Assembly (NCBI GenBank): GCA_006503475.1
Contig: RSEH01000115.1
Span: forward strand, 62,001 to 126,000
Length of the DNA stretch: 64,000 bases
Reading direction: 5' to 3'
Origin: Stentor roeselii
Lineage: Eukaryota > Ciliophora > Heterotrichea > Heterotrichida > Stentoridae
How positions within the stretch are numbered: the first letter of the stretch is position 1; each line of letters begins with the position of its first letter. Both the position numbers and the translations under genes were made by a program. The notes under the pieces are model-generated. The model did not search any database. It saw nothing but the letters and a program-made list of their open reading frames with translations, and was not told where the DNA came from. Shown piece by piece: positions 7,777 through 54,958 of this stretch.

Positions 7777-8334
7777 CTACCTCTTCTGCTTCTTGGGCAT
7801 ATTAGTAAGGTACCTTAAAACCGTGTCGATATTATTCTGACTTTTAGCACTGACACTGTAACAAGCAACATTTCTTCCTGTGATTGACTGTAAACTAAGT
7901 GCAGCAATCAATTCTTCCTCATTCAAAGCGCCTTCCAAGTCGTTTTTATTGCCGAGGACCAGCAAAGAAATGTTCTGAAGCGACGGCCAGGCCATGAGCT
8001 TATGAAGCTGGGCACTCGCCACTTCCAAGTTACCGTGATCAGCAGAGTCAACGATAAAAACAATGCAGTCAACGTCCCGACAGTACTTTTCCCAGCTTTC
8101 TCGGAACTTCGGTTGTCCGCCCAGGTCCCAAAGCCGCAACTCGACTCGACCTTTTTTAATGTGTCGCCTGTTGAAACCTATTGTTGGAATCGTGTCTTCG
8201 TCGAATTCAGAAGTCGCCAGAACGTTTACGAAGGTTGTTTTGCCAGCTCCTTGCAAACCGACTATTGACAGTTCGAGTTCTTGGTTCCAGAATAAAGAAC
8301 GAAGCCAGTTTACAAATCTTTTCCAGAGACTCAT
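7777..8334 (-). CDS. ARL8: ARL8-type small GTPase
   Basis: 185 residues, the normal ARL8 length. Seen: the P-loop GLQGAGKTT, switch I with PTIGFN, switch II WDLGGQPKFR, guanine-binding NKND and SAK. The amphipathic start (WKRFVNWLRSLFW) matches the N-terminal helix of ARL8, which uses an acetylated N-terminus rather than myristate for membrane binding; there is no Gly at position 2. In other eukaryotes ARL8 sits on lysosomes and couples them to kinesin. The P-loop has GAGKT where animals have YSGKT. It converges with the RING-CH gene (36 nt between stops) and diverges from the DCN1 gene. Confidence 0.95.
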   Translation of the reverse strand: MSLWKRFVNWLRSLFWNQELELSIVGLQGAGKTTFVNVLATSEFDEDTIPTIGFNRRHIKKGRVELRLWDLGGQPKFRESWEKYCRDVDCIVFIVDSADHGNLEVASAQLHKLMAWPSLQNISLLVLGNKNDLEGALNEEELIAALSLQSITGRNVACYSVSAKSQNNIDTVLRYLTNMPKKQKR

Positions 8335-8461
8335 TTTTTATGGAGTTGGTCTTGGTTGATGGAAATGTTGGAAATTTTAGGGATTTTGAAGATTTGAAGG
8401 AATTAAGTGAAAATTGGAGGTTTAAGGATTTTAATTTTATGTCTTTGTAAATAAAGATCTT

Positions 8462-9214
8462 ATGGTAACTTGTATTTAGTCACTTAACTCGAAACAACGA
8501 GAAAAACTTACCCAATTCCGGGAAATCACAGGGTTACCTGAAAAGGACGCGAAACAGATCCTGCAGAGTATTAACTGGAACCTTGAAAGAGCAATCGAGT
8601 TCTTCTTTGCTCAAGAGGCATCTGTCCCTGCCCAGTCTACTACGAAAGCTGAACTTATAGAAAGTTTGTTTAATAAGTACAAGTCTGCTTCTGGAGACAT
8701 CGAGTCTGAAGGGATCCAGTCCTTTTGTGATGATTTAGGAATCAACCCACTGGACTCAGTCATTCTCGTCATTTCTTTTCACTTTAAAGCAGAGACTATG
8801 GGAATCTTCAAAAAAAACGAGTTTACTTCAGGGCTTAAAAGTCTTGGATGTGATTCTATTCAAAAAATCAGGGAAAAAATACCTCAGTTAAGGCAACAAT
8901 TGAATGAATTCAGGACTTTTAAACAAATTTATAACTTTGTTTTCACTTTTTCTAGAGAAGTTGGATGCAGGAATCTTAATTTTGAAGTCGCTATTGAACT
9001 TTGGAGACTTTTACTTGCTGAGAAGTTTCAGATGGTTCATAGATGGATTGAGTTTTTGCAGGGAAGGGAAAAAAAACATGATATTTCGAAGGATACTTGG
9101 GAAATGCTTCTTGATTTCTTGGATAATGTTCAGAAAAATGGAATTGAAGCTCATGACCCGAATAGTTCTTGGCCGATTTTGATTGATGAGTTTGTGGAAA
9201 GTTTGAATAGTTAG
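8462..9214 (+). CDS. DCUN1D: DCN1-like protein (cullin neddylation co-E3), one 15-nt intron directly after the ATG
   Basis: The ATG (8462-8464) is followed at once by a 15-nt intron (8465-8479); splicing gives MSLNSKQREKLTQF and a 245-residue protein. Residues 1-45 form a UBA-like bundle (REITGLPEKDAKQILQSINW, then NLERAIEFFF), and 65-245 the potentiating-neddylation (PONY) domain, with AETMGIFKKNEFTSGLKSLG and the C-terminal block WEMLLDFLDNV...WPILIDEFVE. DCN1 proteins bring the NEDD8 E2 to cullins. A start at an internal ATG would remove the UBA, so the spliced model is preferred. The cullin at 50328 and NAE1 at 54996 are partners in the same pathway. Confidence 0.93.
8465..8479 (+). other. 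15-nt spliceosomal intron in the DCN1 gene (phase 0)
   Basis: Sequence gtaacttgtatttag. It separates the start codon from the rest of the gene. Read through, it would place TAG in frame at codon 6; removal restores the UBA domain. Confidence 0.92.
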
Positions 9215-9594
9215 TTTAGGTTATTAATGTGGCTTAGCCTGAAGTAGATATGATTAATTCTTGATGATTATTATATGAGATGAAGGTTTAATATTGAATA
9301 TCGGATCCATTAGTGAAGGCTAAGAATAAAAGTTTATATGATTTTTTTCGAAATTTTTGTAATAATAATTCAAAATTTCACTTCTACCCAGAATAAAGTT
9401 TCAGTTTTTTGACAATAATCAAAATTTCATGTTTAAAAAACCACTTAAAAATCCAAACCTCTAACATTAAGCCTAATTTAAAGGTAAAATAAATAATTAT
9501 AATATTTTATACTTCTATTGAATTTTAATAGATTTAAATAAAATACAATATTTCTTGATTTTCTAGCTAGGAGTTCTCTTAATACCTTATATTA
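9215..9594. other. AT-rich intergenic spacer
   Basis: 380 nt between two + strand genes. G+T-rich just after the DCN1 stop, then A+C-rich toward the next ATG. No RNA gene or repeat was recognised. Confidence 0.6.
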
Positions 9595-10038
9595 ATGGAA
9601 GAAATAGACCTAAGCTCAAGGAACAGTTTTTTAAACGAGACCAAAAGAAATGAAGACATATCCAGCGACATTCGTAGAGAAATAGATCATCGATTTAACA
9701 ACTCTTCAGTAAACAAAAACTATATTTTTCCAAGAACTAAAGAATATTCAAAAGACTTCCTCAAACATGACTGCATTCTGGTCAAAAAGAAACTGAAACG
9801 ACTAGTTCTTAAAAAAGATCAAAGCCTGGCTTCGGTCTATCAAAACAGTCAGCCTTTTTTGAGGCTTCCAGAGATTAGACAAAAAATAAGAATGAAGTCT
9901 TGTTTCAAGAACTCAACTCAGAGTTTGAGCTCTTCTTATGTATTTGCCCCGAAGGCCTTAAATGATTGTCAGCCACGAAAAATTAGCTTATCGAAGAAAA
10001 GTTTCAAGTTACGAATAAAATCGATTCTTATAAAGTAA
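9595..10038 (+). CDS. Unknown small basic protein
   Basis: 147 residues from an ATG at 9595. No family recognised. It is rich in Lys, Ser and Asn and strongly basic in the second half (LVKKKLKRLVLKK; ISLSKKSFKLRIKSILIK), with no membrane segment, coiled coil or Cys/His motif. It lies in AT-rich flanks and runs the same way as the intron-bearing gene 220 nt downstream. The A+C-rich codon use after the start matches neighbouring real genes. Confidence 0.5.
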   Translation: MEEIDLSSRNSFLNETKRNEDISSDIRREIDHRFNNSSVNKNYIFPRTKEYSKDFLKHDCILVKKKLKRLVLKKDQSLASVYQNSQPFLRLPEIRQKIRMKSCFKNSTQSLSSSYVFAPKALNDCQPRKISLSKKSFKLRIKSILIK

Positions 10039-10257
10039 TGATTAATATTTATCTAATTTAAACTGGGTTAATTGAGTTATTTTTCGGGAATTATAATTTG
10101 AACCAAAAAATAAGTTGTTCATTCAGGACTTATCCTTTAACAGCTAATAAACCATTAAAATTTATAAATAATCTTCCAATTCTTATCTAATCAATTAAAT
10201 CAATAGAATAAATTCACCAGATATGTCCCTTAATAATAACTCTAATCCTATCGGTAC

Positions 10258-11205
10258 ATGATAGATACACTCACCCGTTTACTAAAGCACCGAGAAGATA
10301 CCCAAGACTTAATCAAGCAACTCAAAAAACAAAAATACTTAGATGAACTCTCTACTTTAACCGATCGGCCAACGATTAGTCCTAACTCCAAAAGAATCGT
10401 AACCCTTACAAAGATTTCTTATTCAAACTCTCCTCTTTACACTCGATACACCCAAGAGCTCAAAGCGAAGCAGTCAAGATTAAATAAACTCGTCCAAAAA
10501 AAATCCAACCAAGACGATGAAATATTTTCCAAAACCTGCACATTTTTCCCAAGCTGCTCAGAACATCTGCAACGAACTCCAGAAGAACTAATCGAAAGAT
10601 GTTTAAAATGGAAAGAAAGGAAAAGAAAAAACCTTCAAATCTACCAAGAAAAGAGAATCAAGCAAGAAATGAGCGGAATGCAGTCAAAGCCAGACATCAG
10701 CGAAAATTCAAAGAAACTCTCAGAAAAAGTAAAAAAAAAATAGAGAAGTCTAACTCCAGTCCTTTCAAGACTAACTCAATCCAAGGCAGCTCCATGTTTG
10801 ACCCCAGTGAAATCATCTCTTCTTCGAAGCAACATCAGCGAAAACTCAAAAAAAATCCTTGCAAATAAAACTTCAAAACTTTCAAGTCCTTCAAAACTTT
10901 CAAGTCCTTCAAAACTTTCAAGTCCTTCAAAATTTTCAAGTCCTTCAAAGCCTTCAAGTCCTTCAAAACTTTTAAGTCCTTCAAAACCTTCAGAATTTCA
11001 TCAAATTAAAAGAAGCAAGTCAAGAATAGAAAGAAAACACGAAGTGAGACTAAATGAAAGTTTTTTGAAATTTCATCAACTTTCCGACTTTTCCAAGTCC
11101 TTCAAAATTAACTCGAGTCGGTCGCCAGTGAATCGAGTGGACGTGAACCTGATAAATTTCGAAGAGCTGAGAAAAATCATCAGTCCAAGTAAGGCTAAAG
11201 ATTGA
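10258..11205 (+). CDS. Unknown protein with SSPSK repeats, one 15-nt intron
   Basis: The first frame ends in LSEKVKKK-stop, but removing the 15 nt at 10729-10743 joins it in phase to a second frame through 11205, giving 310 residues. No family is recognised. Around residues 97-125, 'TFFPSCSEHLQRTPEELIERCLKWKERKRK' positions hold a motif common in ciliate cytoskeletal proteins (TF.P, then an E..ER..W segment). A six-copy hexapeptide repeat [LFP]-S/L-SPSK follows at about residues 203-238, a likely target for proline-directed kinases or a microtubule-binding tail (inference). Its 3' end overlaps the convergent gene at 11195 by 11 nt. Confidence 0.72.
10729..10743 (+). other. 15-nt intron made of GT, ten A and TAG (phase 0)
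   Basis: Sequence gtaaaaaaaaaatag. It is in phase 0 after codon 157 and would add an in-frame TAG if retained. Removing it opens a further 153 codons containing the SPSK repeat. Confidence 0.8.
10879..10986 (+). repeat. 18-bp tandem repeat, six copies, coding SSPSK hexapeptides
   Basis: Unit close to CTTTCAAGTCCTTCAAAA; the first three copies are identical, later ones vary at the first residue (L, F, P, L). A partial seventh unit follows. Perfect copies suggest ongoing slippage. Confidence 0.9.
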
Positions 11206-11620: not shown

Positions 11621-11637
11621 TTATAACAATATGAGAC

Positions 11638-12666
11638 CTAGTCAAAATACGAGTTAATTAATTCACTAGGGTTACAAGTTGGCAGAAGGTTTACCTTGTC
11701 AACAGCATATCGAACAATATCCCGTTCCCATCCTTTTTCCTTTTGTTTCATTTTCCTGATCCTTCTAAAGATGATTTTATTGAGTTCTAATATTTCTTCA
11801 TTGCTTGCCTTGACGTTTTGTTTCTCATCTCTCATGATCTGCAGTAGTAGTTTTCCTCCGTCATGTCCAAGCAAAGCCGGGTTTTTCAAGTAATCAAGTC
11901 TGATGGCTTTCTTAGTCCCAAACTTCAAAACTTTCATCTTTCCTTGATTTTCGCCTTCAGTCTTAATCTGGAAAAACTTGCTGTTCTCCGGTGTAGAAGT
12001 GACAAGAGGAATTTCAGGTTTTTCCCAAGGAAGATGAGACGTCATGATTCTCCTTTCAGTCAACAACGGATGCTCTTCATAAAACTCTAACTTCTGCTCA
12101 AATGTCAAGTTTCGATGACTGTCAATCAACTTCTTCCGATGACTGCGATTTGGACTTTCAGATTGATTCTGAACGATGAAGCTATTTGAAGACTCTTTCG
12201 TTATTTGCTGACTTTCATTTGAATTTCCAGCTTTTGAGAGTTTTACTCTTCGAGTCGATGACTGGATCCGTGACTTGATGTCTTTTATTTGAGAGTCTTT
12301 CACGGCTTGCATTGATTTTAGTTTTAAATGAAGAGTCGCTTGCTGCTTTTTAGGAGTTCTTTTGGAAAGCGTTTGTTCTTCGTCTCGTAGCTTTAAAGCT
12401 CCTGGGTGGAGGGACTCGTCGAAGAAGCTTCGGGAAATCTCGTCGTAGATTCGGTCAACTTCGACTAACTCACTTGTGCCCAGATGGGATGAATTTAAGG
12501 ACTTGTGTCTTGAGTTTTCGTATGAAGTCTTTAGACGACGTGAATTGTCGAAGTAGACTACGCAGTTACGGGTTCGGTGAACTGCTAGTTCACCGTTTTT
12601 TAGGTCTTTTTCTGGCCTTAAGGCTGGAATTTCAGGAATTTGACGGTAGAACATTGAGTATTTCAT
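11638..12666 (-). CDS. Unknown basic protein
   Basis: 342 residues from the ATG at 12666. No domain recognised. It is basic and Ser-rich in the first half (SKRTPKKQQATLHLKLKS), with a more ordered C-terminal third (LDYLKNPALLGHDGGKLLLQ, then EEILELNKIIFRRIRKMK), probably helical. No signal peptide or membrane segment. It may be a ciliate cytoskeletal protein, but that is a guess from composition only. It diverges from the BRCT gene across a 355-nt spacer and is followed after 17 nt by the small gene 11195-11620. Confidence 0.7.
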   Translation of the reverse strand: MKYSMFYRQIPEIPALRPEKDLKNGELAVHRTRNCVVYFDNSRRLKTSYENSRHKSLNSSHLGTSELVEVDRIYDEISRSFFDESLHPGALKLRDEEQTLSKRTPKKQQATLHLKLKSMQAVKDSQIKDIKSRIQSSTRRVKLSKAGNSNESQQITKESSNSFIVQNQSESPNRSHRKKLIDSHRNLTFEQKLEFYEEHPLLTERRIMTSHLPWEKPEIPLVTSTPENSKFFQIKTEGENQGKMKVLKFGTKKAIRLDYLKNPALLGHDGGKLLLQIMRDEKQNVKASNEEILELNKIIFRRIRKMKQKEKGWERDIVRYAVDKVNLLPTCNPSELINSYFD

Positions 12667-13021
12667 TTACGTTATTGTTTATTGTTTGAAATTGGATGAT
12701 ATCTGTGTGGATGGGTTTTGGATGAAGAATGAATGGCGTAGGTAAGGTTTTAGGAATGGGAAAATGATGTGATTGGTTATTAAAGGTTAATTTCATTAGA
12801 TATAGTGGGTTATTAGATTATCATTGAAACATCATTAAAATAATCAATAAAGAATTCAAGTCTTCATTTTCTCTTTATCTGTTTTCCATCATCATCCATT
12901 GTAAATAATCCAATATGTAAAAATTCTAAATATTAAATCATTCTCATTCCTAAAAATGATTCAAACTCGTTCTAAACCTAAAATCAAAACTTTTAAAACA
13001 CTTTCTTCTTCCCTCCAATAA
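12667..13021. other. Divergent intergenic spacer
   Basis: 355 nt between divergent genes. The left half is G+T-rich and the right half A+C-rich on the + strand, with the change near 12830. No RNA gene or repeat recognised. It should hold both promoters. Confidence 0.55.
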
Positions 13022-13780
13022 ATGTCTCAAGTGGTAGTTTGCGCAACAGGTTTCTCACCTTCAGAAAAACATGGAATCGAGTCGATGGTGCACGAGTTAG
13101 GAGGAAGATTCATCGACGACCTGACAACCATAGCAACAGTATTAATAGCGAAGCATCAAGGAACATTAAAATCTCGAACTTCAACAGACGTGTTAAAAAT
13201 CCCAGTAGTAAGCGAGAAGTGGTTATACGACTCCTTCAAAAAGAAGACTTTCACTAAATTCTACGAAAGATACAAACTTCCTGTCCTCGGCGGTTTAAAG
13301 ATCTGGACTTACAAGATTGACACGAACCGCAAGTCAAAAATCAGAAAGTTAGGAGGAATCTTGGCAACTCATCAGTCCCAAGAATGCTTTTGCATCTTGA
13401 CTGACCCTGAGTATCAAAAAATGCTGCAACTTTGTGTGCCTGGAATGAAAGTTGTCACTTCTCTTTGGCTTGATAGGATCATTGAAGAGGGAAAGTGGAT
13501 AGAACCTGAGGATTATGCTGTTCAAACTACTGAACCTACTACTCAGGAGCTTTATTTGGCCAGATGTGTGTTTTTTATTGATGATTTGGCCGAGGAGGAG
13601 GGGAAAGTTATTAGAGAAATTATTATTTTAGGGGGAGGGACTTATGTGAATTCGCAGCATCCTTGTATCACTCATGTTATTTCTGCTGAAGGGAGGAAAG
13701 CTATTCCTAATACTATTAAACTAACACCCAATTCCTTTATGCAAGCCTGCTTGAATAAGTCTTTGTACTCGATAAGGTAA
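13022..13780 (+). CDS. Triple-BRCT protein (TopBP1/Dpb11-like)
   Basis: 252 residues, nearly all BRCT. Repeat 1 spans about 1-80 (GFSPSEKHGIESMVHELGG, ending VVSEKWLYDSFKKK). Repeat 2 spans about 85-165 and ends with KVVTSLWLDRIIEEGKWIEP, which carries the conserved W of BRCT helix 3. Repeat 3 spans 175-250 (LARCVFFIDD, VIREIIILGGGTYV, CITHVIS). BRCT repeats bind phosphoproteins in DNA-damage and replication control; tandem arrays like this are typical of TopBP1, Dpb11 and ECT2. The protein is far shorter than TopBP1 and has no other domain, so orthology is not claimed. Confidence 0.85.
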   Translation: MSQVVVCATGFSPSEKHGIESMVHELGGRFIDDLTTIATVLIAKHQGTLKSRTSTDVLKIPVVSEKWLYDSFKKKTFTKFYERYKLPVLGGLKIWTYKIDTNRKSKIRKLGGILATHQSQECFCILTDPEYQKMLQLCVPGMKVVTSLWLDRIIEEGKWIEPEDYAVQTTEPTTQELYLARCVFFIDDLAEEEGKVIREIIILGGGTYVNSQHPCITHVISAEGRKAIPNTIKLTPNSFMQACLNKSLYSIR

Positions 13781-13998
13781 TCAGCAAGTTCTAAAACTCG
13801 AATTTGAGTTTAGAATAATTGGTTTTTATTAGATAGTTTGAATGGAATCATAATCTCAATGGCTTTTGTATGAGATTTACCTCTTGGATAATTGAAGAAA
13901 CTATTATCTTTCTTGTTTAATTTATCTATTCAAGACTTTTAAAATAATCCAACAGGTGAAAAAAGCATTTGAATAATAGATTCATTATAAATCACAAA

Positions 13999-15510
13999 AT
14001 GGAACTTATTTCAAGCATCTGCTCATATCCAGAATGTTCTGAAATTCCAGAATACTGGAAAACATCAGAAAAGCCCCTGAAGTTCTTTTGCTTTCATCAC
14101 ATACCAGACTCTAGTGACAATACAGACCCAGCAATGGCCATCTCTAAACCCGAAGACAAAAATTCTTACTTTAACCAGCTAAAATCACTGAAAGAAAACC
14201 TAAAGAAACTAAAAAAAAATACAATCGAATCTTATCAGAAGTTAATAAAAGTCATTAATACCCACCTACAAAAAAGTTTAGAAAAAATAGAAAAAGACTT
14301 TAAGGCAATTGAAATAAACTTGAACTACATTCTAAAGCAAAACAAGATTTTTGAACCTGTCATTCATGACATTGAAAAAAAACTAAAAAAACAGTTGGAT
14401 GAATCAACTTTTTTCATCGAACCGATTATTCCTATTATTGAATCTTTCTTTACAAAAAATTTGAATCTTGAAGCCAAAGCAGATGTCAGTGCTCTCATCG
14501 ACAGTCGACTTATCAACAACAAGACCCCTCTCGAAAAAAAGTTATCGATTTTATCAAAATCTTTAGGCTTCAGCAAAAGTTTAGACCCAGAACTTTATAT
14601 TTCACCTTCAAGCATTTCAAAGATGGACTTGAATTTCTTTAAAAACCCTTCAAAATTAATTGTTTCTCCTGAAAATCAACTAATTTTCACAATAAACAAC
14701 AAAGAAGAAAACCTAATTATCTGGAAAATTGCTGAAAAAATTACTTTAAACGACTTAATCAGTTTCAATCGAAGCAAAATCAAAGACTTTTACCTGATCA
14801 ACAAGTCAAAAACTTTGCTAATTTTATTTGAAGACCTGTCACAAAGTGGCGTTGTTGACGCTATCCCTCAGTTTTACTTCGGAAAAATAAAAATCCAAAA
14901 CCCGCTCGCAGACCGAACTCGAAGTGAGGAGACTGGAACTGTCACTATTTTTAAACTTTTCGAACTTGACCAGTTCATTGCCACAGCTACTTTCGATGGA
15001 AAGTTGAAAATTTGGAGGGTTAAAGACTTGAAACTTCAGAGAGAATTTCAAATGCATACGGCTTATTATCATGGGTCTATCAGCAGTTTTGATATCAGCA
15101 GTGATGGAAAGTTTGTTGTTTCGGGATGTGTCAATGGAAAAATGTGCTTGCGTAGTATTTTTAATGATTCTCAAATTCATAAAACTAGCGCGCATAGTGG
15201 AGGAGTCACTGCTGTCGCTTTTAGTCCTGAAGGTGAAATTATTGTCTCTGGTGGGGAGGATAAAACTTTTAAAATTTGGAAAAGAAATGAGTTTAGAGTA
15301 CCTTTTTTGAAAAAAGATGCGAAATATATGAAAATTAAGGAAATTTCTTTTGGGGTTACTCCTCAGCTTATTCTTACTGGATGTCCTAAGTCAGTAATAA
15401 TCTGGAAATATGGCCAATCCTTAGAAAAAACCGAAATCAAATCAAAATCCGCTCTTCTAAACCTCACCCAAATCTTCCCAGACGCATCAAACTTCATGCG
15501 ATTTATATAA
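13999..15510 (+). CDS. WD40 protein with N-terminal Cys/His cluster and coiled coil
   Basis: 503 residues from the ATG at 13999 (the frame is open a little upstream, but with no ATG). The N-terminus has C8, C13, C31, H33 and H34, a possible zinc-binding box. Residues 60-130 form a Lys-rich coiled coil. WD repeats are clear at about 314-470: GKLKIWRV, then SSDGKFVVSG, then VTAVAFSPEGEIIVSGGEDKTFKIW. Repeats before 314 are diverged (LIIWKI near 240), so a seven-blade propeller is plausible but not shown. The order of zinc box, coiled coil and propeller suggests a scaffold. No specific function is assigned. The stop is 9 nt from the stop of the convergent CFAP97 gene. Confidence 0.82.
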   Translation: MELISSICSYPECSEIPEYWKTSEKPLKFFCFHHIPDSSDNTDPAMAISKPEDKNSYFNQLKSLKENLKKLKKNTIESYQKLIKVINTHLQKSLEKIEKDFKAIEINLNYILKQNKIFEPVIHDIEKKLKKQLDESTFFIEPIIPIIESFFTKNLNLEAKADVSALIDSRLINNKTPLEKKLSILSKSLGFSKSLDPELYISPSSISKMDLNFFKNPSKLIVSPENQLIFTINNKEENLIIWKIAEKITLNDLISFNRSKIKDFYLINKSKTLLILFEDLSQSGVVDAIPQFYFGKIKIQNPLADRTRSEETGTVTIFKLFELDQFIATATFDGKLKIWRVKDLKLQREFQMHTAYYHGSISSFDISSDGKFVVSGCVNGKMCLRSIFNDSQIHKTSAHSGGVTAVAFSPEGEIIVSGGEDKTFKIWKRNEFRVPFLKKDAKYMKIKEISFGVTPQLILTGCPKSVIIWKYGQSLEKTEIKSKSALLNLTQIFPDASNFMRFI

Positions 15511-15519
15511 ATACCATAA

Positions 15520-16107
15520 TTAAAGTTCTAAATAGCTGACCTTTCCACGAACGCCATTCGACGACCCAGGCCGTGCATTCCTTGCATGAGCAGTATCAGG
15601 TCGAGACAAGGGCGATTTAGTCGAGTCAAAACTGGTGCATCCTCCAATGCTAGAAACTCTTGGAATTCGTCGAGAGTTCTCTGAAAGTTTCTGCGAAAGA
15701 TACTTTTTGAACTTGAATTCTTTATTCCACTTTCTGAAGTTGTAACTCGACTTCACTTCCTGAAGACGGTTAAGAATGTTAAGGTTTTCTTCTGTTATCT
15801 TTGAAAGCTGCTGGGCTCTTGCAAATTCGTTTAAAGATCGCGAACTTGAGTTCTCGTGAAGCTTTTTTGAGTTTGAACCTCTTGTGTTTATTTCCATCAT
15901 TTTTTGAAGAAGGATCTGGTTTTCTGCGTGAATTGTTGAAATGTGGCTTTGCTTTAAAGCCTTTGATTTCAGCTTTTGTTTCACGTGGAGAAGCTCTTTT
16001 GGGGCTTGGGTGTCTACCCGGGATTTTATTAGGTTGAGACGGTTTTTGTGGGAGATGTGCTCTTTTGATACTTGCAGGTCTTCATTTTTCTTGATGCCGG
16101 ACCACAT
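15520..16107 (-). CDS. CFAP97-domain protein (hemingway/KIAA1430 family)
   Basis: 195 residues from the ATG at 16107. The CFAP97 domain pattern is visible in two parts: an HxxxIHAENQILLQKMMEI segment at about 54-73 and TEENLNILNRLQEVKSSYN with FRKWNKEFKFKKYLSQKLS at 108-145. Family members are axonemal or sperm-tail proteins in animals and flagellar in protists. The Ser/Arg-rich tail (SRPDTAHARNARPGSS) is likely disordered. A heavily ciliated cell would be expected to have several such paralogs. Confidence 0.78.
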   Translation of the reverse strand: MWSGIKKNEDLQVSKEHISHKNRLNLIKSRVDTQAPKELLHVKQKLKSKALKQSHISTIHAENQILLQKMMEINTRGSNSKKLHENSSSRSLNEFARAQQLSKITEENLNILNRLQEVKSSYNFRKWNKEFKFKKYLSQKLSENSRRIPRVSSIGGCTSFDSTKSPLSRPDTAHARNARPGSSNGVRGKVSYLEL

Positions 16108-16308
16108 TATAAGGAAATCGTTGATTTTTCCAATGGAAGTATTCAGAAAAATGAATGTTTAAGATGGACTCAAGCCCGGTACTAAAAATTCAAGATAAAG
16201 TTTTTGAAATAATATCCAACTTTTACGAAAAGTTTCTTCGTTCTGTCAAGTTTTAATCGAATTTTTAGTAATTTCTTAACTTTCTAAGTGATAAAGTTAA
16301 AAACGCAT

Positions 16309-25025: not shown

Positions 25026-25036
25026 TAATTTAAATA

Positions 25037-29487: not shown

Positions 29488-29494
29488 CTATTTA

Positions 29495-44122: not shown

Positions 44123-44143
44123 GAATTAGTTAAGCTAGTCTTT

Positions 44144-45103: not shown

Positions 45104-45112
45104 TTATAAGCC

Positions 45113-46620: not shown

Positions 46621-47031
46621 ATGTTAATCTTGCTATTACTACACCTAACCAGCTCCTTTACCCTATCAGACTGCTTAGCTCTCTTTATTCCACAACTTCC
46701 ACTTTACTAAAATCTTCAGAGCTGCCAAAAAGTCTAAATTTATTTGAATTTGATAACAACAAGTCCAAAATATTAGAAAAGTTTCAACAAAAAATATTAA
46801 AATTTTTGATAGATTTCACATACCAGACTTTTAATTACCCACCACTTGACTCAATCTCGAAAGGCCTTGCATGTTTTAAATAACTCCACTGAAACCTATC
46901 CAAAGATATTTTCAAGTCATTGCAATCATAGCCATTTAACCCTAGAGTCAGAAGTTAAAGCTTTTCACCTGACGCTGGAGTTCTTCAGCTGGAAAACTTT
47001 CATCATCGCTTCATCGAATTCTGGCTCATGA
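46621..47031 (+). pseudogene. Remnant of a secreted or receptor-type protein gene
   Basis: An ATG at 46621 opens a convincing signal peptide (MLILLLLHLTSSFTLSDC) that stops after 29 codons. Two other frames continue with protein-like text: LLKSSELPKSLNLFEFDNNK... up to about 46880 and STETYPKIFSSHCNHSHLTL... with EFFSWKTFIIASSNSGS to 47031. At least two frame changes separate the pieces and no 15-nt GT..AG segment explains them. The pattern of signal peptide, helix, then 'FSWKTFIIASS' recalls the start of a periplasmic-binding-protein-like (ANF receptor/class C GPCR) domain, a weak inference. Best read as a decayed host gene fragment. Confidence 0.4.
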
Positions 47032-48295: not shown

Positions 48296-49858
48296 CTACC
48301 TAGATACTTCTATAGTTTTCCCTAAAGTTCCAGCCTTCAGCATCTGTACCCTAAAGTCAGTGGTCATTCTCTTGACAAGAGTGATATGTGCTAAATTCGA
48401 GTTCAAGACTTCACTTTCCTCTTCAAAGCAACTCATAAAAACCTTAAAATTCTCATAGTCAATATCAGCATTCATTTCAAGTTGCGCTTCTCTAATAATC
48501 TCTTCAAATTCCCCATCCTTGAATTCACATCCAGCCCTTTCAAGTGCAGTTTTTAAGTCCTTTCCAAGTATTTTCCCTTCATTTTTCTTATCAAAATAAG
48601 TGAAAGCCTCCCACATGAGTTCTTCATTCATAAGTGCTTTTTTATTCATAGTAGCGACGAGAAATTCAGTGAAGTTAATTTTTCCATTATGAATATAAGA
48701 GCAGTTATCAATGATCTTCTCGATTTCGTCTGAAGCGATGTTGAACCCGCTGTTTTTCATCGCTTTTTGAAGTTCATTTGCTGTGATGAAGCCTTTTTTT
48801 TCAGTGTCGATGGCGATGAAGGCTTCTCTCAACCCGTTGATCTGAGAGTTTGACATGCTTTTAACAGCGATTTTAATGGCTTCTTGCCAGAGTTTGTTCT
48901 TGGCTTTGTATTTGCAAAGAGCTTTTAGAACATCTTCAGGAATGATTTGTTTTTTTGAGTCGAAAGTTTCAAACCATCGATGTTTCAATGCTTCTTTCAT
49001 TGTTATTCTTCTGGATGAGTTTACATTTAGCATTAGTCTTATCAGCTCTTTGGCGTTTGTTGATATTCGCTCCATGCTCTCTATGTCAAGACTTGATCGT
49101 GCTTTGGATGCTTTTTGGTAAATGCTCTCGAGACTGGCACCTTTGAAGGGATGTCTTCCGAGAAGGATGAAGTATAAAAACACTCCTAGCGACCATACAT
49201 CGCATGATTTTGTGTAACTTCCTCGGAGTACTTCTGGTGCTAGATAATAAGGAGTCCCGGCTAAGGACTTTAACTTAAAATTGTTGTCGGTTTTTATTGA
49301 CATTCCAAAGTCACAAATTTTAATCACATCCGACGTTTCAGACTCATAAATGAAATTTTCCGGTTTAAGATCTCGATGAGTAATTCCATTCAAATGAAGA
49401 TAATTAACAGCACTTAGTAATTGCTTCATTATATTAGCAGCTTCTTCCTCAGAAAAAAACCCTTTAGTAATAAGTCTTTCACAAACATCTCCTCCAGTGC
49501 AAAGTTCCATAACAAGATGAAGATAAAGCTGGTCTTCATAAGTTTCATAGAGTTTGATAATGTTAGGATGGTCAACATACATCAAAATTTCGAGTTCCCG
49601 TTTCATGATAGTCCGATGTTTGGCGATTTTCTGCTTAAGTATCGACTTTATTGCAAACCTTTGAGAAGAATACTGCGACTTCCGAATTGCCTCTCGCACT
49701 GTGCCGTACTGACCATGTCCCAAAACTCTTATGAATTGGAAGGAATCGTGTATGCCTGAATAGTTCTTACTTGTGAGTTTCACTGCATTTGAAATGGTAG
49801 AACTCAAAATTGGTTTGCACTTTTGAGGCTTTACTTGCCTTGATATGCATATTCCCAT
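48296..49858 (-). CDS. Calcium-dependent protein kinase (CDPK) with degenerate EF-hands
   Basis: 520 residues. N-terminus MGICISRQ fits myristoylation (G2, S6) and palmitoylation (C4). The kinase domain, about 38-296, is complete: Gly loop GHGQYGTV, FAIKSI, HRDLKPEN, CDFG, APE. A junction helix and four EF-hand positions follow. Loop 1 (D351, DTEKKGFITANE) keeps D1, E3 and E12 but has Lys at 5. Loop 2 (SYIHNGKINFTE) has Ser/Ile at 1/3. Loop 3 (DKKNEGKILGKD) has Lys at 3. Loop 4 (QLEMNADIDYEN) lacks acid at 1 and 12. So the kinase looks active but calcium binding looks weak or partly lost. CDPKs are typical of plants, ciliates and apicomplexans. Confidence 0.93.
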   Translation of the reverse strand: MGICISRQVKPQKCKPILSSTISNAVKLTSKNYSGIHDSFQFIRVLGHGQYGTVREAIRKSQYSSQRFAIKSILKQKIAKHRTIMKRELEILMYVDHPNIIKLYETYEDQLYLHLVMELCTGGDVCERLITKGFFSEEEAANIMKQLLSAVNYLHLNGITHRDLKPENFIYESETSDVIKICDFGMSIKTDNNFKLKSLAGTPYYLAPEVLRGSYTKSCDVWSLGVFLYFILLGRHPFKGASLESIYQKASKARSSLDIESMERISTNAKELIRLMLNVNSSRRITMKEALKHRWFETFDSKKQIIPEDVLKALCKYKAKNKLWQEAIKIAVKSMSNSQINGLREAFIAIDTEKKGFITANELQKAMKNSGFNIASDEIEKIIDNCSYIHNGKINFTEFLVATMNKKALMNEELMWEAFTYFDKKNEGKILGKDLKTALERAGCEFKDGEFEEIIREAQLEMNADIDYENFKVFMSCFEEESEVLNSNLAHITLVKRMTTDFRVQMLKAGTLGKTIEVSR

Positions 49859-50327
49859 TATTTATTAGATGGTGGTGTTTTGTTCATTTGATTTGACCTA
49901 TTTTTTAGTTTGATATAGGATTGTGTGAAGAAAAAGCTTGGGTTTAGAGAGGTTTTGATGATGGTTTAGGATTTTTTGTTTTTTAGGGTCAGGGTGGGAA
50001 TAGGACAGGAGTAAAATATGGAGCCGAAATTTTTTGGGTGATGAATTTTGGTTTGGATCTAGAGAATAGAGGAGATATCAGCAAGATCAAGTGGGAATAT
50101 TAGAAGAGTTTAGGTTCGGGTAAGGATTATGAGAAGGTGCGTCTTGATAAGAGCTGGTAGGGATTTATAATTACAAACCAAGATTCATTATATATGAAGA
50201 TAAATTAAGGAAGTTTAAGAATTCGATTTTTTTTAGATATGATAAAAAAACCATCATCTCTTCTAGTTTTCACCTTGTTATATACATGACTGATAATCTG
50301 AATTATAAATGGAGCTAAACTAATCAA
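49859..50327. other. Intergenic spacer with a very G+T-rich block
   Basis: 469 nt between two - strand genes. From 49861 to about 50150 the + strand is extremely poor in C (1 C in 49921-49980, against 19 G and 26 T), then from 50230 it becomes A+C-rich. No frame or RNA gene recognised. Confidence 0.55.
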
Positions 50328-52457
50328 TTAAGCTATATAATTGTAAACATCAGATTTTTCACTACTCCTTTCCAAATAATCCTTCTGAATCAGCATTTCA
50401 ATGCGAGATTTAATCAACTTGACATCAGGATCAAACCTTCCAACAGTAAACTTAAAGACTTCATTGATAAGGTCCTTATGTTCAAGAGTACGCCTCATTT
50501 TCATAATTTTGACAATAACTGCATCCAAATAAAACTTCCTTTCATCTAAAACAGCTTTATCAAGTGCATTATCATCAGCCTTCTCCTCAAATTTTTCCCC
50601 AATAACTTCCAAGTAAACCCTAATCGAGTTGCCACTAAAATTTTCATTAAAACTTAAAACATCAGTCTCCATTAAAACTTTTCCCTTAGAAGTCTTATTC
50701 AAAATTTTCGCTTTAACAAGTCCAAGCAAATGTCTTTTCATTTCATTTGAAGAGCCTCCAATAGTTTCAAGCAATTCCGTGATCGAAAACGAGTTTCTAT
50801 TATTAAACAATAAAAGAAGACATCCTTGATAAATACTTCCAATTAAAGTCCTTTTCCTTTTCCAATAAAAATCGATTTCACATGAGCCGTAGTTGAAGCG
50901 ATAAGAAAGTCTTCTTCCAGAGTGATTCGAAATGTATTGTTTCGAGAAAGTCGAGCAGAAACTCGCTAAACTTTCAGGAAGGTTAAACTGAAGAAACTGC
51001 TCCGGAGGCCAGTTGTTTGCAGTTAAGACCTTGAGTGAAAACTCTTCTGATTCAATGTCTGAAGAGTTTCTGATGTCGTTAACCATTCCTTGAATTTTCG
51101 ATACAAACTTCAACCCGCACTCTTGTTTTAAGTACTTGATGATGATCTCTTCTTCCTCTAGTTTTCTCTTTGTTTTATCTAAAAGTCGCTGTGCAAGGAA
51201 CTGCCGATGTTTTAGTTCAAATATGTCTTTATCTCGAATAAAAGGAAAGATTGATAAAATTTTCTGAAGTTTTACCTCGTTTTCAGCTTCTAGGTTAGTA
51301 TTTAAGAATTTTTTTAGGAAGGAATCGATGTAAATTGCGATGAAAGTTGGAATTACGCTGTTTTGTGATAAAGCTGTTTCAAGTGCCAGGTTTGACTCGG
51401 TTTCAAAGAACTGGTTTCGGTTGAAACATTTGACTTTCACGTTGTTGAATGATTCGAATAGCTTGAAAACCTCTTCAATGAGAAAAACAGGTTTTTTCAT
51501 CAGGTCTTTGTTGGAATAAATTTCATCGACAAGAGCCTTTAAAGCACTTTTGAACTCTATTCTTAATCGATCGATGAAAAAGCGATTAGAAGAAGGGATT
51601 TCGTAAAGTCTTTTAATAGTTGATAGGTCTGCTTCTTTGATCAGTTTGAAAAGTGACTGATTTGTGAAGATATCTTCGATGTGGTCAGAGATGTACTCTT
51701 GTTGAATGACTTCGAGGATACCTTTCAAGGAATGACTCCCGATGACTGTGTTGCAGAAAAGCTTTTCTTGAATTATTTTTTCATTTATATAGATGAAGTA
51801 GTTTGAAAGGGAAAGTTGTTTTATCTTCTCCTCGGCATCTTGTTTGTAGAACTTCTGAGATGCTTGGAAAAAGTGAATTTGGAACACTTCTTCATAGACT
51901 TCGAAACTACCAAGGCCTAACTCGATAAACATTCCAAGGATTGACTTAAGGATGTCTTTTTCGTAGACTTCTCCTGTTTTGTTTTTCATTGATTCGGTTA
52001 TCAGCCAGGTTTTGATCTTTTCAGCGAGTTTTCCTTCAATGAAGATTTTTTCTTTGAATAAAGATAAACCGGTTTGGTTTAGTTTGGGTTTTAGCTTTTC
52101 TTTGATGTAAGTGTTTTCCATGTAGGATGATGACCCACATATTGAGAGTAAAGATGCCTTGAAGTTTTCCCAGATTCGGAAAAGAGAATCTATTAAAACT
52201 ACTGAATCTTGAAGACTCGATGAAATTTTTAGGATGAAGTCTTCTAAGAGACTTGTGATCATAGTGTAGAGTTCTTCACCTCCATCATCCATGTGGACTA
52301 ATGAGTATACAGCTTGGTAATTTTTTTCGTATTCTGAAATCGCTTGATGGTGAAGAATACTGGTGAAGTTTTTTCGAATAGTTTCCAAATGCTCCTCTTT
52401 ACTTCCAGTATTCTTAAAGGGTCTAGTCATAGAAGTGATTCTAATTTTCTTAGACAT
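50328..52457 (-). CDS. CUL3: Cullin (CUL3-like)
   Basis: 709 residues, close to CUL3 length. N-terminus like CUL3 (EYEKNYQAVYSLV, then GGEELYTMITSLLE). Long helical cullin repeats, then the cullin homology region and the C-terminal winged helix with the neddylation motif IVKIMKMRRTLEHKDLINEV; K653 is the expected NEDD8 site. The end is VYNYIA, as in other cullins (VYTYVA). CUL3 forms E3 ligases with BTB adaptors and RBX1. DCN1 (8462) and NAE1 (54996), both needed to modify it, are in the same window. The assignment to CUL3 rather than another cullin rests on the N-terminus. Confidence 0.92.
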   Translation of the reverse strand: MSKKIRITSMTRPFKNTGSKEEHLETIRKNFTSILHHQAISEYEKNYQAVYSLVHMDDGGEELYTMITSLLEDFILKISSSLQDSVVLIDSLFRIWENFKASLLSICGSSSYMENTYIKEKLKPKLNQTGLSLFKEKIFIEGKLAEKIKTWLITESMKNKTGEVYEKDILKSILGMFIELGLGSFEVYEEVFQIHFFQASQKFYKQDAEEKIKQLSLSNYFIYINEKIIQEKLFCNTVIGSHSLKGILEVIQQEYISDHIEDIFTNQSLFKLIKEADLSTIKRLYEIPSSNRFFIDRLRIEFKSALKALVDEIYSNKDLMKKPVFLIEEVFKLFESFNNVKVKCFNRNQFFETESNLALETALSQNSVIPTFIAIYIDSFLKKFLNTNLEAENEVKLQKILSIFPFIRDKDIFELKHRQFLAQRLLDKTKRKLEEEEIIIKYLKQECGLKFVSKIQGMVNDIRNSSDIESEEFSLKVLTANNWPPEQFLQFNLPESLASFCSTFSKQYISNHSGRRLSYRFNYGSCEIDFYWKRKRTLIGSIYQGCLLLLFNNRNSFSITELLETIGGSSNEMKRHLLGLVKAKILNKTSKGKVLMETDVLSFNENFSGNSIRVYLEVIGEKFEEKADDNALDKAVLDERKFYLDAVIVKIMKMRRTLEHKDLINEVFKFTVGRFDPDVKLIKSRIEMLIQKDYLERSSEKSDVYNYIA

Positions 52458-52483
52458 AATTATTCTACATTGTAATTTTAAAA

Positions 52484-53653
52484 TTAAACCTTATTAACCT
52501 TAATAAAAATCTCTCCGAAAAAGCCTTTTTGTTCCAAACTAACTTTTCCTTTATTAGCAAGCATCATCAATTCATAGAACTTCTGAGCAGTATCAAGTCT
52601 TTCATTAGAATGAATCATAGAAAATTTAACTTTTCCTTTCTTTTTCCTGATGGTTTCCAACAACCTTCCAGATCTCTGAATCAAAAGACTTTCATCATTT
52701 TCCCCCCTCTCAAATATTTCCTCATTCTTGTTATTTTCAAGGTCTTGTTCATCAATTCGCTGAACTTCATGATTATTTTCCTGAACCTCAAGATTCATTC
52801 CAACCTGTTCAAAGTCCTGATCCATCCTTTCAGGACTTTCCAAATTTCCAAATTCAAAAGTTTCTTCTTTAACTTCTTTTAACTTTTCCTGTACCTCATT
52901 CGGCAAGAAGATGATATTTTTATGAAAAAGTTCAAAAGAATCAAGCCCGATCATATCAACAGCGATTTTCAAATGTTCTTTAACAATATTTTCATTTTTT
53001 TTGTTTTTTTTAATCAAAGTTTTCTTATCAACCGGTATTCTTTTGAGAACTCTTGTTTTACGAGCAGGAGTTTGCTGAGCAGTTGTGATTTTAGGAGTGT
53101 CGATTTGAATGAGGTCAGGGTCCTGGTATTCAAGATTAGGGGAGTCTTCTTGCATCATACTTGCAGCGTCGTCTAACTCAACAATAGGCTGAACACTTTT
53201 CGGAGTATAGTTCACGTCGTTCAAGGTAATCGCGTTGAGATCCGCCAAGTTCCTTCCGATTTCAATGCTACCTCGGGTAGAAGCTCCGTACGACCCGACT
53301 GAAATCGAGTCTTCAATTGCCAATAAAGCTTTTTTCGGGTTTAATGTAATCATTTGTGTCATTTTCACGTTTTTCTTGTATTTCTGTTCTTTTTTCGGCG
53401 TCATTGCGAAACTCTGAAGAAACTCTTCCAGTTCATTCAAGATGAGCAGGGACTTCTGGAATAAAATCTTGAGAAGTCCAATTAACATCTGCCCGCTTTG
53501 CCTTAAACTGACAGTTTTACAAGTTTCTGCCAGGTCCGAAGCGACAGAGGAAATATCAGTCGAGTTGATGACGGCCTTTGAGAGTTTTTTTTCATTGTAG
53601 TAAGCTTTAAAGAGTTTTGAAAATTCCGGCTTGTCGTAAAGACTAACTTCCAT
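52484..53653 (-). CDS. RAD21/REC8-type cohesin kleisin
   Basis: 389 residues, short for RAD21. The N-terminal Rad21/Rec8 domain is clear: FKAYYNEKKLSKAVINSTDI, then TVSLRQSGQMLIGLLKILFQ and KSLLILNELEE. The middle is acidic and disordered. The C-terminus is the winged helix that binds the SMC1 head: DTAQKFYELMMLANKGKVSL, then EQKGFFGEIFIKVN. A separase site (ExxR) could be any of several, such as EIGR near 127-130. It could be the mitotic or the meiotic kleisin. The ATG is 27 nt from the divergent gene. Confidence 0.85.
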   Translation of the reverse strand: MEVSLYDKPEFSKLFKAYYNEKKLSKAVINSTDISSVASDLAETCKTVSLRQSGQMLIGLLKILFQKSLLILNELEEFLQSFAMTPKKEQKYKKNVKMTQMITLNPKKALLAIEDSISVGSYGASTRGSIEIGRNLADLNAITLNDVNYTPKSVQPIVELDDAASMMQEDSPNLEYQDPDLIQIDTPKITTAQQTPARKTRVLKRIPVDKKTLIKKNKKNENIVKEHLKIAVDMIGLDSFELFHKNIIFLPNEVQEKLKEVKEETFEFGNLESPERMDQDFEQVGMNLEVQENNHEVQRIDEQDLENNKNEEIFERGENDESLLIQRSGRLLETIRKKKGKVKFSMIHSNERLDTAQKFYELMMLANKGKVSLEQKGFFGEIFIKVNKV

Positions 53654-53680
53654 TTACAATCCCCTTGAAAATTATTCTGA
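53654..53680. promoter_or_regulatory. 27-nt divergent intergenic region (shared promoter)
   Basis: Only 27 nt separate the ATGs of the kleisin gene (-) and the unknown gene (+). Both transcription starts must lie within it or inside a gene. No motif recognised. Confidence 0.6.
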
Positions 53681-54958
53681 ATGGCCGATGAGCGGATTCT
53701 GTTGAACTGCATTGTTCCGATCTCTGAGATGAACTTTCGCTGCAGTGTCGAAGTCACTGAGAAGATTTTGAGAGACGTGTTGCGAGTAAGTTTTAAACAG
53801 CTCAGTTGCTTTATTCCCCAGTTTTCCTCGATGATTAAACAAGAAGTTGACAGTCACAATGAAAACTTCTCGTATTCCAGGTCAGCTCAAATTATCCCTT
53901 GCGAGGTTTTATTTGATTTGATTGAAGAACCGAAGTTTTGGAGATGTTTAAGAAATGTAAGAGATGAGTAGCTGGCGAATGGGTATGAAACTTGTGTTAA
54001 CTTGCATTTGGTGAAGGTTTGTCTTTACTTGCATTATGTGAAAAGAGTGGCGATTAACCTTTTGACGACTTTTTTCAATTCTTATGTGATTTTAGATACG
54101 GAGTCTATGCAAAATGGTGCTTCTCAGAATATCAATGTTTTATTTCGAAGTTTCAACCTGGCCGGGCGGTACCTGCACAAAAATCTGATCACTGTCTGGC
54201 TGAACCACAATAAAGACCTGCTGAGTGACAGCAAAACCTTGGCACCTGATGAGTACTTGATACTCGCTTCTAATACTTTTGATAAACAACGACTTATCCT
54301 TGAGAAGGTCCCTCAAGTCCGCATGAATAATAATCGAGACCCGAGGACTGGAGTCTTCTTGATCGAGGATGTATCAAAAAAACCTGATTTTGACTTCAAA
54401 CTTGAACAGATCATGGCAGGGCTTAAGTCAGACCAAATTGATTTTGACTACTCGCATAAGAAAAACTCGTTGATTTATGATAAAAACCCGCAAGGTCGCA
54501 AAAAGATGCTGAAAATGCTGGAAACTAAGAATATTAAAGACTTTCAAGGGTATCTACGGGACCCAGAATTGATGGTCAAGCTTAGGGAAACTTTGAATAG
54601 TGCAAGCACTTTGCTTGTGAGGACGAAAATTAATTCGGAAAATTTCAGCTATTTGAACTACCGTGACTCGACTGGGTTGATTCAGAATGTCGCTAATTTG
54701 ATTAAGCCGAATAGGTCTGAAAGTGGATTTGCTAGGCCTGAAACTGCGTCGACCTGCAGGCCTAAGACTCGCCCACAAACCAGCAGGACCCGATTTTTCA
54801 GGCCGTTGTCAGGTGTCTCCTCAACGGTCAAACTAGTCAGGCCGATGACTTCAGTTCCCAAGCTAAAGAAGCCCAACGCATTAAGCCTAGGAGGTAAAAG
54901 CGAGCCTTTCCACGTGATGACTTTGAGAGAGTCTGTTTCTTTAAGTTCTCTAGTTTAA
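53681..54958 (+). CDS. Unknown protein with one 15-nt intron
   Basis: 420 residues after removing the intron at 53957-53971, which joins ...FWRCLRN to LANGYETCVN. The second frame has no ATG near its start, so the spliced model is needed. No family recognised. The first 250 residues look ordered and helical (LRDVLRVSFKQLSCFIPQFS; NINVLFRSFNLAGRYLHKNL). The C-terminal 100 residues are Arg/Pro/Ser/Thr-rich (RPETASTCRPKTRPQTSRTR), a composition frequent in ciliate basal-body and axonemal proteins. Head-to-head with the kleisin and 37 nt before NAE1. Confidence 0.78.
53957..53971 (+). other. 15-nt intron in the unknown gene (phase 0)
   Basis: Sequence gtaagagatgagtag, after codon 92. Retention gives an in-frame TAG. 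Unlike the other four it has G at position 10 and A at 8 and 11. Confidence 0.88.

What the first reader, a model, noticed from the sequence alone, without database searches (positions are those of the whole stretch)
8000..54000. Repeated sawtooth of G+T / A+C strand asymmetry, independent of gene boundaries and strand
On the + strand the composition drifts from A+C-rich to G+T-rich, then drops back sharply, many times. Hand counts: 23341-23400 has 44 G+T of 60, 23461-23520 has 24, 23521-23580 has 21, all inside one gene. At 26101-26160 there are 4 C, at 26161-26220 there are 20 C. At 24781-24840 versus 24901-24960 G+T falls from about 38 to 23. Other sharp drops by eye: about 13715, 15385, 16140, 16780, 18675, 19370, 20110, 24840, 29300, 33465, 37700, 39080. 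Drops occur within + genes, within - genes and between genes (49.9-50.25 kb: 1 C in 49921-49980). Within one gene it changes synonymous codon choice. A sawtooth of this shape is unchanged by reverse-complementing, so each unit has A+C-rich 5' and G+T-rich 3' halves on both strands. Many spacings look like 0.65-0.75 kb or about twice that. I know of no description of this in heterotrichs. Possible causes: replication or repair asymmetry on a small scale, nucleosome-linked mutation, or traces of how macronuclear DNA is processed or joined.
Basis: seen in the sequence. Interest (0 to 1): 0.8.

Follow-up and report, generated by a model that had tools for sequence, protein, structure and literature searches.

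The report
Point-centred DNA strand asymmetry sawtooth
In a ciliate genome, both DNA strands switch base preference abruptly at random-looking points and recover over about half a kilobase on each side, as if the DNA had been broken and repaired at those same points again and again over evolution.

Summary
Synonymous sites flip sharply from G/T-ending to A/C-ending (+ strand) and recover gradually, far beyond codon-shuffled controls. It holds over 245 kb of two contigs, window included, in genes on both strands, and between C/T-ending and A/G-ending codons used as independent data. Each drop is point-like (pooled transition SD about 25 bp or less) with tracts reaching about 450-500 bp on both sides, whatever its strength. 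Spacing is roughly random (mean 2.4 kb); a 0.7-kb unit is not supported. Drops ignore gene boundaries. The change is a GC-neutral excess of C-to-T and A-to-G on the strand whose 3' end points at the drop. Human meiotic break flanks show strand-asymmetric C and A mutations of the same polarity (passages). Best explanation: recurrent germline double-strand breaks at fixed points, with about 0.45 kb of 5' resection and mutagenic 3' single strands. No positioning motif was established; TA-anchored germline inserts are disfavoured, not excluded. The pattern is shown; the mechanism is inferred.

The parts
134..1034 (.). Drop at 584 with +-450 bp asymmetric flanks
   Evidence: gain 15.0 (for gain >10, about 5 of 81 over 245 kb expected false from shuffles)
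1811..2711 (.). Drop at 2261 with flanks
   Evidence: gain 20.9
8910..9810 (.). Drop at 9360 with flanks
   Evidence: gain 20.3
9650..10550 (.). Drop at 10100 with flanks
   Evidence: gain 11.8
12376..13276 (.). Drop at 12826 with flanks
   Evidence: gain 16.3
13480..14380 (.). Drop at 13930 with flanks
   Evidence: gain 21.8
14942..15842 (.). Drop at 15392 with flanks
   Evidence: gain 19.4
15685..16585 (.). Drop at 16135 with flanks
   Evidence: gain 11.1
16281..17181 (.). Drop at 16731 with flanks
   Evidence: gain 13.9
17318..18218 (.). Drop at 17768 with flanks
   Evidence: gain 14.7
21086..21986 (.). Drop at 21536 with flanks
   Evidence: gain 11.3
23007..23907 (.). Drop at 23457 inside the adenylate/guanylate cyclase gene, with flanks
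   Evidence: gain 27.8; paralogues
24389..25289 (.). Drop at 24839 with flanks
   Evidence: gain 18.5; codon switch visible
25720..26620 (.). Drop at 26170 with flanks
   Evidence: gain 19.1
28827..29727 (.). Drop at 29277 with flanks
   Evidence: gain 11.8
33025..33925 (.). Drop at 33475 inside the oxysterol-binding protein gene, with flanks
   Evidence: gain 34.1; no fitted drop within 250 bp in 3 of 4 paralogues, a weak one (gain 4.0) about 70 bp off in the fourth
37249..38149 (.). Drop at 37699 inside a minus-strand gene, with flanks
   Evidence: gain 34.7
38632..39532 (.). Drop at 39082 with flanks; left flank includes a 12-bp G+T-rich coding minisatellite (38880-39046), so this one may be partly repeat composition
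   Evidence: gain 17.5
45954..46854 (.). Drop at 46404 with flanks
   Evidence: gain 14.8
48860..49760 (.). Drop at 49310 with flanks
   Evidence: gain 12.8
49791..50691 (.). Drop at 50241 between genes, with flanks
   Evidence: gain 23.6
51926..52826 (.). Drop at 52376 inside the minus-strand cullin gene, with flanks
   Evidence: gain 21.5

Best explanation
Each drop marks a fixed point where germline DNA has been opened again and again over evolutionary time, most likely by a double-strand break. The 5' ends are resected by about 450 bp on both sides, leaving 3' single strands whose ends face the break. Damage or error-prone refilling of those strands causes C-to-T and A-to-G changes on them. 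On the + strand this enriches G+T to the left of the break and A+C to its right, so the sign flips at the break and fades where resection ends. Selection removes the changes at coding positions 1 and 2, so synonymous and non-coding sites carry the imprint. SHOWN: the sharp point-like centre, equal flanks of fixed reach, transition-dominated GC-neutral differences, both gene strands, no gene-boundary preference, occurrence on other contigs. SUGGESTED: that the two flanks of a drop are coupled. INFERRED: that the opening is a double-strand break, that it is germline (heritable), that it recurs, that Spo11 or another nuclease makes it, and the chemistry.
For: Drop-centred profile with fixed reach: third-position flank signal 0.20-0.35 for weak drops and up to 0.46 for strong ones within 400 bp, fading to 0 by about 550 bp in all three strength classes (26, 36 and 32 drops); best reach 350-400 bp plus taper (49 drops of gain >15). 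Left and right amplitudes of a drop correlate 0.03 (all) and 0.06 (70 isolated), where a crude simulation of independent flanks under the same selection gives -0.61. Transition SD fits equally well at 1-25 bp and worse from 40 bp when pooled (68 drops). Substitution classes: at third positions on the strand pointing to the drop, C falls from about 0.18 to 0.07 and A from about 0.33 to 0.22, G and T rise, and GC3 stays 0.34-0.37 out to 1.5 kb. The effect concentrates at silent sites: 0.36 at position 3 and 0.26 in non-coding, against 0.044 and 0.047 at positions 1 and 2. Precedent of the same polarity and base classes: C>N and A>N on the forward strand left of human meiotic breaks, with C>T and A>G among the types discussed (passages of PMC7615360); C-then-G switch clusters at bidirectionally resected breaks in yeast (passages of PMC6786661). 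A TP6A_N (Spo11/Topo VI-A family) domain in a 385-aa frame is in this genome.
Against: No convincing motif at the drops. Pooled centres are tighter than the about 100 bp given for human SPO11 sites, although 13 of 68 drops individually prefer the broadest transition tried. The fit also needs 45 rise elements (shuffles 10.8), so drops with one fixed kernel do not describe everything; and amplitudes facing each other across an interval correlate 0.10 (51 intervals), no less than the two sides of one drop. Near-saturated asymmetry needs sites that persist far longer than self-destroying PRDM9-type hotspots. GC3 is flat around drops, so the GC-biased conversion expected at crossover hotspots is absent. 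A-to-G is nearly as strong as C-to-T, so simple cytosine deamination is not enough. Coding context effects are unexplained: GAR, GGY and CGY codons barely respond while TCR and TCY respond most, and non-coding sites lack this context dependence. Fourfold sites are less purine-rich toward the drop (0.39 vs 0.51 away), so it is not purely transitions. Three telomeric ends (3 of 3 looked at) show no such flank. No break map, germline sequence or polymorphism data could be examined.
Confidence: 0.45

Rival explanations
1. Each drop is the junction left by a germline-limited insert (an internal eliminated sequence, or a boundary of macronuclear-destined segments). The insert, absent from this somatic genome, makes its two flanks mutate asymmetrically, for example by mobilisation and gap repair or by stalling replication. 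This can combine with the break model: the insert would be what fixes the break.
For: Point-like centres, random spacing, gene-independent placement and apparent turnover between old paralogues suit insertions. Blepharisma stoltei has 39,799 such inserts on a 41-Mb somatic genome, about 70% intragenic (Results part 1 of PMC9942856).
Against: About three quarters of B. stoltei inserts are bounded by repeats containing TA, but in 51 coding drops the posterior TA weight is 2.92; simulation (25 sets of 51) expects 3.72+-0.24 if all sit at TA and 2.80+-0.24 if placed at random. No PiggyBac-domain match in the genome, though no control genome rang either. In this model the flank asymmetry itself still needs a mechanism.
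Confidence: 0.22
2. Each drop is a two-way replication-fork barrier or a sharp termination point. Forks arriving from either side stall and expose the lagging-strand template, the strand pointing to the drop, which gains G+T.
For: Same GC-neutral G+T sign as replication skews in other genomes (recalled); sharp centre and symmetric flanks.
Against: Reach is about 450 bp in all strength classes, and spacing is random with mean 2.4 kb, far below known replicon sizes (recalled). No convincing barrier motif.
Confidence: 0.14
3. Short converging germline transcripts end at each drop, and transcription-linked repair enriches G+T on the non-template strand.
For: Transcription-associated asymmetry in mammals has the same G+T sign (recalled).
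Against: Requires thousands of paired 450-bp transcripts ending within tens of bases of each other; drops behave alike in + and - genes; genes show only weak overall trends (5' third-position residual about -0.1, 3' about +0.1).
Confidence: 0.06
4. Protein sequence, domain structure or translational codon choice produces the pattern.
For: Response differs strongly between codons; in the cyclase family two paralogues share a drop upstream of the first catalytic domain and others drop before the second; the third-position signal correlates 0.165 with G/T at position 1.
Against: Exceeds within-gene synonymous shuffles; also present in non-coding DNA (0.26); correlation with hydropathy only 0.085; 3 of 4 oxysterol-binding paralogues have no fitted drop within 250 bp of the window gene's, and the fourth only a weak one about 70 bp off.
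Confidence: 0.04

Closest known systems
Mutational strand asymmetry at human meiotic (PRDM9/SPO11) hotspots (PMC7615360, passages read)
   Same: Point-centred; C and A mutated on the forward strand to the left of the break and the reverse complement to the right; flanks set by resection; C>T and A>G among the mutation types discussed.
   Different: There it is an excess of new mutations over flanks of 1-2 kb. Here it is a near-saturated composition imprint with about 0.45 kb reach, fixed points, no GC bias and no known motif.
Single-switch hypermutation clusters at bidirectionally resected breaks in yeast (PMC6786661, passages read)
   Same: C-mutated on the left, G-mutated on the right of the break, as predicted for 3' overhangs.
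   Different: One-off events with an APOBEC acting on ssDNA, cytosines only, tracts up to dozens of kilobases.
Replication 'N-domain' sawtooth skews of mammalian genomes (recalled)
   Same: Combined GC and TA skew; sawtooth shape.
   Different: Scale of hundreds of kilobases to megabases, sharp upward steps at origins and slow declines. Here the sharp step is downward, at 0.5 kb scale, with reach not tied to the next step.
Internal eliminated sequence junctions of Blepharisma (PMC9942856, Results part 1 read)
   Same: Dense, mostly intragenic, point-like.
   Different: Mostly TA-bound there; coding drops here show no TA anchoring. The words skew, asymmetr and base composition do not occur in that paper's main text.
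Subtelomeric composition bias of hypotrich nanochromosomes (recalled)
   Same: A ciliate strand asymmetry.
   Different: Confined to chromosome ends; here internal, and the 3 ends looked at lack it.

Membership tests
Imprint of recurrent germline double-strand breaks with resection | Opposite, mirror-image strand asymmetry on the two sides of a point | tested here: met
Imprint of recurrent germline double-strand breaks with resection | Polarity: C and A depleted on the strand whose 3' end faces the point | tested here: met
   polarity of precedent
Imprint of recurrent germline double-strand breaks with resection | Limited reach, alike for weak and strong points | tested here: met
Imprint of recurrent germline double-strand breaks with resection | GC-biased gene conversion around crossover hotspots | tested here: not met
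   GC3 0.34-0.37 at all distances to 1.5 kb; a usual companion of hotspots (recalled), not a requirement of breaks
Imprint of recurrent germline double-strand breaks with resection | Physical breaks at the points | not testable with these tools
   no break map
TA-bound IES junction (Blepharisma type) | TA at the junction | tested here: not met
   observed 2.92; 3.72+-0.24 expected if all at TA; 2.80+-0.24 if random (51 coding drops). A part of the drops at TA is not excluded
TA-bound IES junction (Blepharisma type) | Insert present in the germline copy | not testable with these tools
   no germline sequence held
TA-bound IES junction (Blepharisma type) | PiggyBac-type excisase encoded | tested here: inconclusive
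   no match, but no control genome rang either
Replication-domain skew | Skew spans the interval between neighbouring switch points | tested here: not met
   mean profile fades by about 550 bp although mean spacing is 2.4 kb
Transcription-associated skew | Sign follows gene orientation and boundaries | tested here: not met
   only a weak gene-end trend

The most novel reading that the evidence does not exclude
This ciliate's germline is opened at roughly 15,000 fixed, near-base-precise points (extrapolated from 94 fitted drops in 245 kb, less about 13% false). They recur so persistently that each has written a near-saturating half-kilobase mutational shadow on both sides into the codons of ordinary genes. 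The somatic genome alone would then be a readable map of a programmed germline break or insertion system that is not of the known TA-bound type.
Probability: 0.35. Interest if true: 0.9.

Novelty: new variant of a known kind. Interest (0 to 1): 0.78.

Why it matters
If right, the sequence alone maps sites of recurrent germline DNA opening at near-base resolution in an organism where such sites are hard to assay, and it gives an estimate of single-strand tract length (about 450 bp). It would show that break-associated mutation can dominate synonymous codon choice. It also warns that codon-usage, selection and phylogenetic models assuming uniform silent mutation along a gene will fail in such genomes. 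Whatever the cause, a strand asymmetry this strong, fine-scaled and gene-blind needs an explanation. No description of it appeared among the titles listed by five literature searches (20 of 78, 5 of 5, 0, 10 of 48 and 10 of 80 papers listed; open-licence PMC library only).

Tried and rejected
(1) TA or IES-like motif: a first k-mer count showed TA and TATA enriched at drops, but this came from AT-rich non-coding drops and from the rule that a fitted optimum lies between a G/T and an A/C base. With those removed TA is not enriched in coding drops. (2) Intergenic enrichment of drops (67% of 36 and 64% of 28 drops in coding vs 83-84% of bases) vanished with third-position-only detection, so it was my weighting. 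(3) Spacing periodicity: none seen. (4) Shared oriented words in the flanks: mostly composition. (5) Words at the centres: TATNTA-like words beat a shifted-window control, but that control was not matched for coding. With matched controls several words remain nominally high, all picked after the fact and none claimed: TTATNTA (5 of 48 coding intervals vs 1.2 expected, 10 of 34 mixed vs 5.0), GGTCA (11 of 48 coding vs 2.8), ATAATTC (7 of 34 mixed vs 1.0), CAGTGA (5 of 48 coding vs 2.1). (6) Recent duplicates to polarise mutations: a 911-bp and a 1209-bp aligned pair show no strong drop that differs between copies. (7) Protein-domain link in cyclases: suggestive in one family, mostly contradicted in another. 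(8) UGA as tryptophan (Blepharisma-like code): rejected; 22 in-frame TGA against 455 TGG in frames of 300 codons or more, 15 of the 22 within about 31 codons of a frame end and 6 of the other 7 in one doubtful frame. (9) ADAR and PiggyBac domains: no match, uninformative.
Full report
WHAT WAS CHECKED. The window is bases 62001-126000 of contig C21 in a 44.4-Mb, 522-contig assembly. CCCTAACA telomere repeats occur at contig ends (three right ends read, C5, C9 and C11), the unit reported for Blepharisma; C21's own ends are not telomeric. The code looks standard: TGA is rare and 15 of 22 in-frame cases sit near frame ends. A heterotrich with the standard code is therefore plausible; the species was not identified.

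IS IT MORE THAN CHANCE? I scored each third codon position by whether it ends in G/T or A/C within its C/T or A/G synonymous pair, turned to the + strand. Shuffling within gene and pair (200 shuffles) destroys the signal: skewness of increments is -0.595 observed against 0.048+-0.082; steep falls 24 against 0.2; steep rises 1 against 0.55. In contig C21 and the first 100 kb of C29 the skewness is -0.40 to -0.62 for 100-200 bp windows and fades to about zero at 1 kb (no shuffles there). A greedy fit of point elements found 94 drops and 45 rises (gain >7), and 81 and 35 (gain >10), in 245 kb. Twelve shuffled sets gave means of 12.6 drops and 10.8 rises (>7), 4.8 and 3.7 (>10). Drops located only from C/T-ending codons (77) predict the shift of A/G-ending codons, and the reverse holds with 23 drops. 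Drops inside + genes (42) and - genes (26) give the same profile.

GEOMETRY. With position set on a random half of the sites and profile read on the other half (10 splits, about 59 drops and 44 rises each), drops change from +0.31 at -90 bp to -0.37 at +60 bp. Rises climb almost linearly over about 500 bp, so sharp-down, slow-up is real. The profile fades to zero by about 550 bp on each side for weak, medium and strong drops alike. The best-fitting reach is 350-400 bp plus taper (49 drops), and the pooled transition SD is about 25 bp or less (68 drops; 13 of 68 individually prefer the broadest width tried). Left and right amplitudes of one drop correlate 0.03-0.06 where independent flanks would be driven to about -0.6 by selection in a crude simulation, which suggests coupling; amplitudes facing each other across an interval correlate 0.10 over 51 intervals. 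Spacing over 92 intervals has mean 2.43 kb and CV 0.97, with no 0.7-kb peak. The object is best described as a point with two fixed-length tracts, not a repeating unit, although the need for rise elements shows that this description is not complete.

PLACEMENT. Using coding third positions alone, 11 of 77 drops fall between genes against 15.4 expected. Genes show only a weak average trend (5' about -0.1, 3' about +0.1), and hydropathy correlates at 0.085. The oxysterol-binding gene's strong drop at 33475 (codon 339) has no fitted counterpart within 250 bp in 3 of 4 paralogues (43-47% amino-acid identity); L003 has a weak one (gain 4.0) at codon 362, about 70 bp off, and L005 a strong one at codon 241, about 300 bp off. 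In adenylate cyclase paralogues, L039 and L040 both drop strongly just before the first catalytic domain, while the window gene drops about 400 bp earlier. Near the second domain the window gene and L040 drop strongly, L039 weakly (gain 6.4), and L038 shows a slight change without a fitted element. With two families this may be chance or partial conservation. Strong drops thus seem mostly to turn over on the time scale of old duplications.

SUBSTITUTIONS. On the strand whose 3' end points to the drop, third-position C falls from about 0.18 to 0.07 and A from about 0.33 to 0.22, while G and T rise and GC3 stays at 0.34-0.37 out to 1.5 kb. Positions 1 and 2 barely move (0.044, 0.047) while position 3 moves 0.36 and non-coding 0.26, as expected for neutral change filtered by selection. 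Codon context matters in genes: TCR 3.1 and TCY 2.9 log-odds, but GAR 0.04, GGY -0.01, CGY -0.28 (81 drops; regression). Non-coding sites show about 0.8-1.8 in all 16 contexts. I cannot explain this difference.

MECHANISM. A point with mirror-image single-strand-type mutation on both 3'-facing strands is what resected double-strand breaks should leave. In human meiotic hotspots the flanks carry C>N and A>N on the forward strand, with C>T and A>G discussed (passages only). In yeast, bidirectional resection gives C-then-G switch clusters (passages only). The polarity here is the same. A TP6A_N (Spo11/Topo VI-A family) domain is encoded, which is necessary for a Spo11 version but not telling. What this model lacks is a reason why breaks should recur at near-base-precise, gene-blind points long enough to nearly saturate synonymous sites. 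A germline insert at each drop would supply that. Blepharisma stoltei has about one insert per kilobase, but those are mostly TA-bound, and TA anchoring of coding drops is disfavoured here. Fork barriers would give the same flanks. I put 0.45 on recurrent breaks, 0.22 on inserts as the primary cause, 0.14 on fork barriers; the rest is transcription, coding effects and unknowns.

NOVELTY. Five searches aimed at this (titles and abstract starts only, 20 of 78, 5 of 5, 0, 10 of 48 and 10 of 80 papers listed, open-licence PMC only) listed no paper that describes kilobase-scale, point-centred strand asymmetry in a ciliate or elsewhere. The words skew and base composition do not occur in the main text of the two Blepharisma genome papers. 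I file it as a new variant of a known kind (break-associated mutational asymmetry), because the polarity and anatomy match a known process while strength, permanence, precision and density do not.

LIMITS. About 0.25 Mb of 44.4 Mb was read. Gene models are open frames without introns. Motif statistics are weak at 82-86 drops. No germline, break, replication, RNA or polymorphism data were available.

Noticed in passing
window 38880-39046: A 12-bp minisatellite (GGGTACCCTTGG, 13.9 copies) lies inside the 1686-codon minus-strand frame; G+T-rich on the + strand and just left of the drop at 39082.
   Followed up: no
window 18058-24249: 2063-codon frame with two matched stretches of the adenylate/guanylate cyclase catalytic domain; places of 67-77% DNA identity elsewhere in the genome.
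   Followed up: partly
G000 C21 123160-124077 and 126946-128116: Recent tandem gene duplicate (about 87-95% identical by stretch) at the right edge of the window; one copy carries 252 extra bases that belong to an internal repeat with 84-bp offset.
   Followed up: partly
window 10871-10992: 18-bp tandem repeat (6.8 copies, 91% match) CTTCAAAACTTTCAAGTC, A+C-rich.
   Followed up: no
coding third positions in the flanks of 81 drops (C21, C29): GAR, GGY and CGY codons hardly respond to the asymmetry, AAR and GGR weakly, while TCR, TCY and CAY respond most; non-coding DNA shows no such context rule.
   Followed up: partly
L039 928 and L040 992: Two diverged cyclase paralogues on different contigs have very strong drops (gain 36.7 and 36.5) at nearly the same aligned place; chance or shared ancestry not settled.
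   Followed up: partly
frames of 300 codons or more in C21 and C29 1-100 kb: TGA looks like a rare stop (22 in-frame TGA vs 455 TGG, 15 of 22 near frame ends): standard code, unlike Blepharisma.
   Followed up: yes
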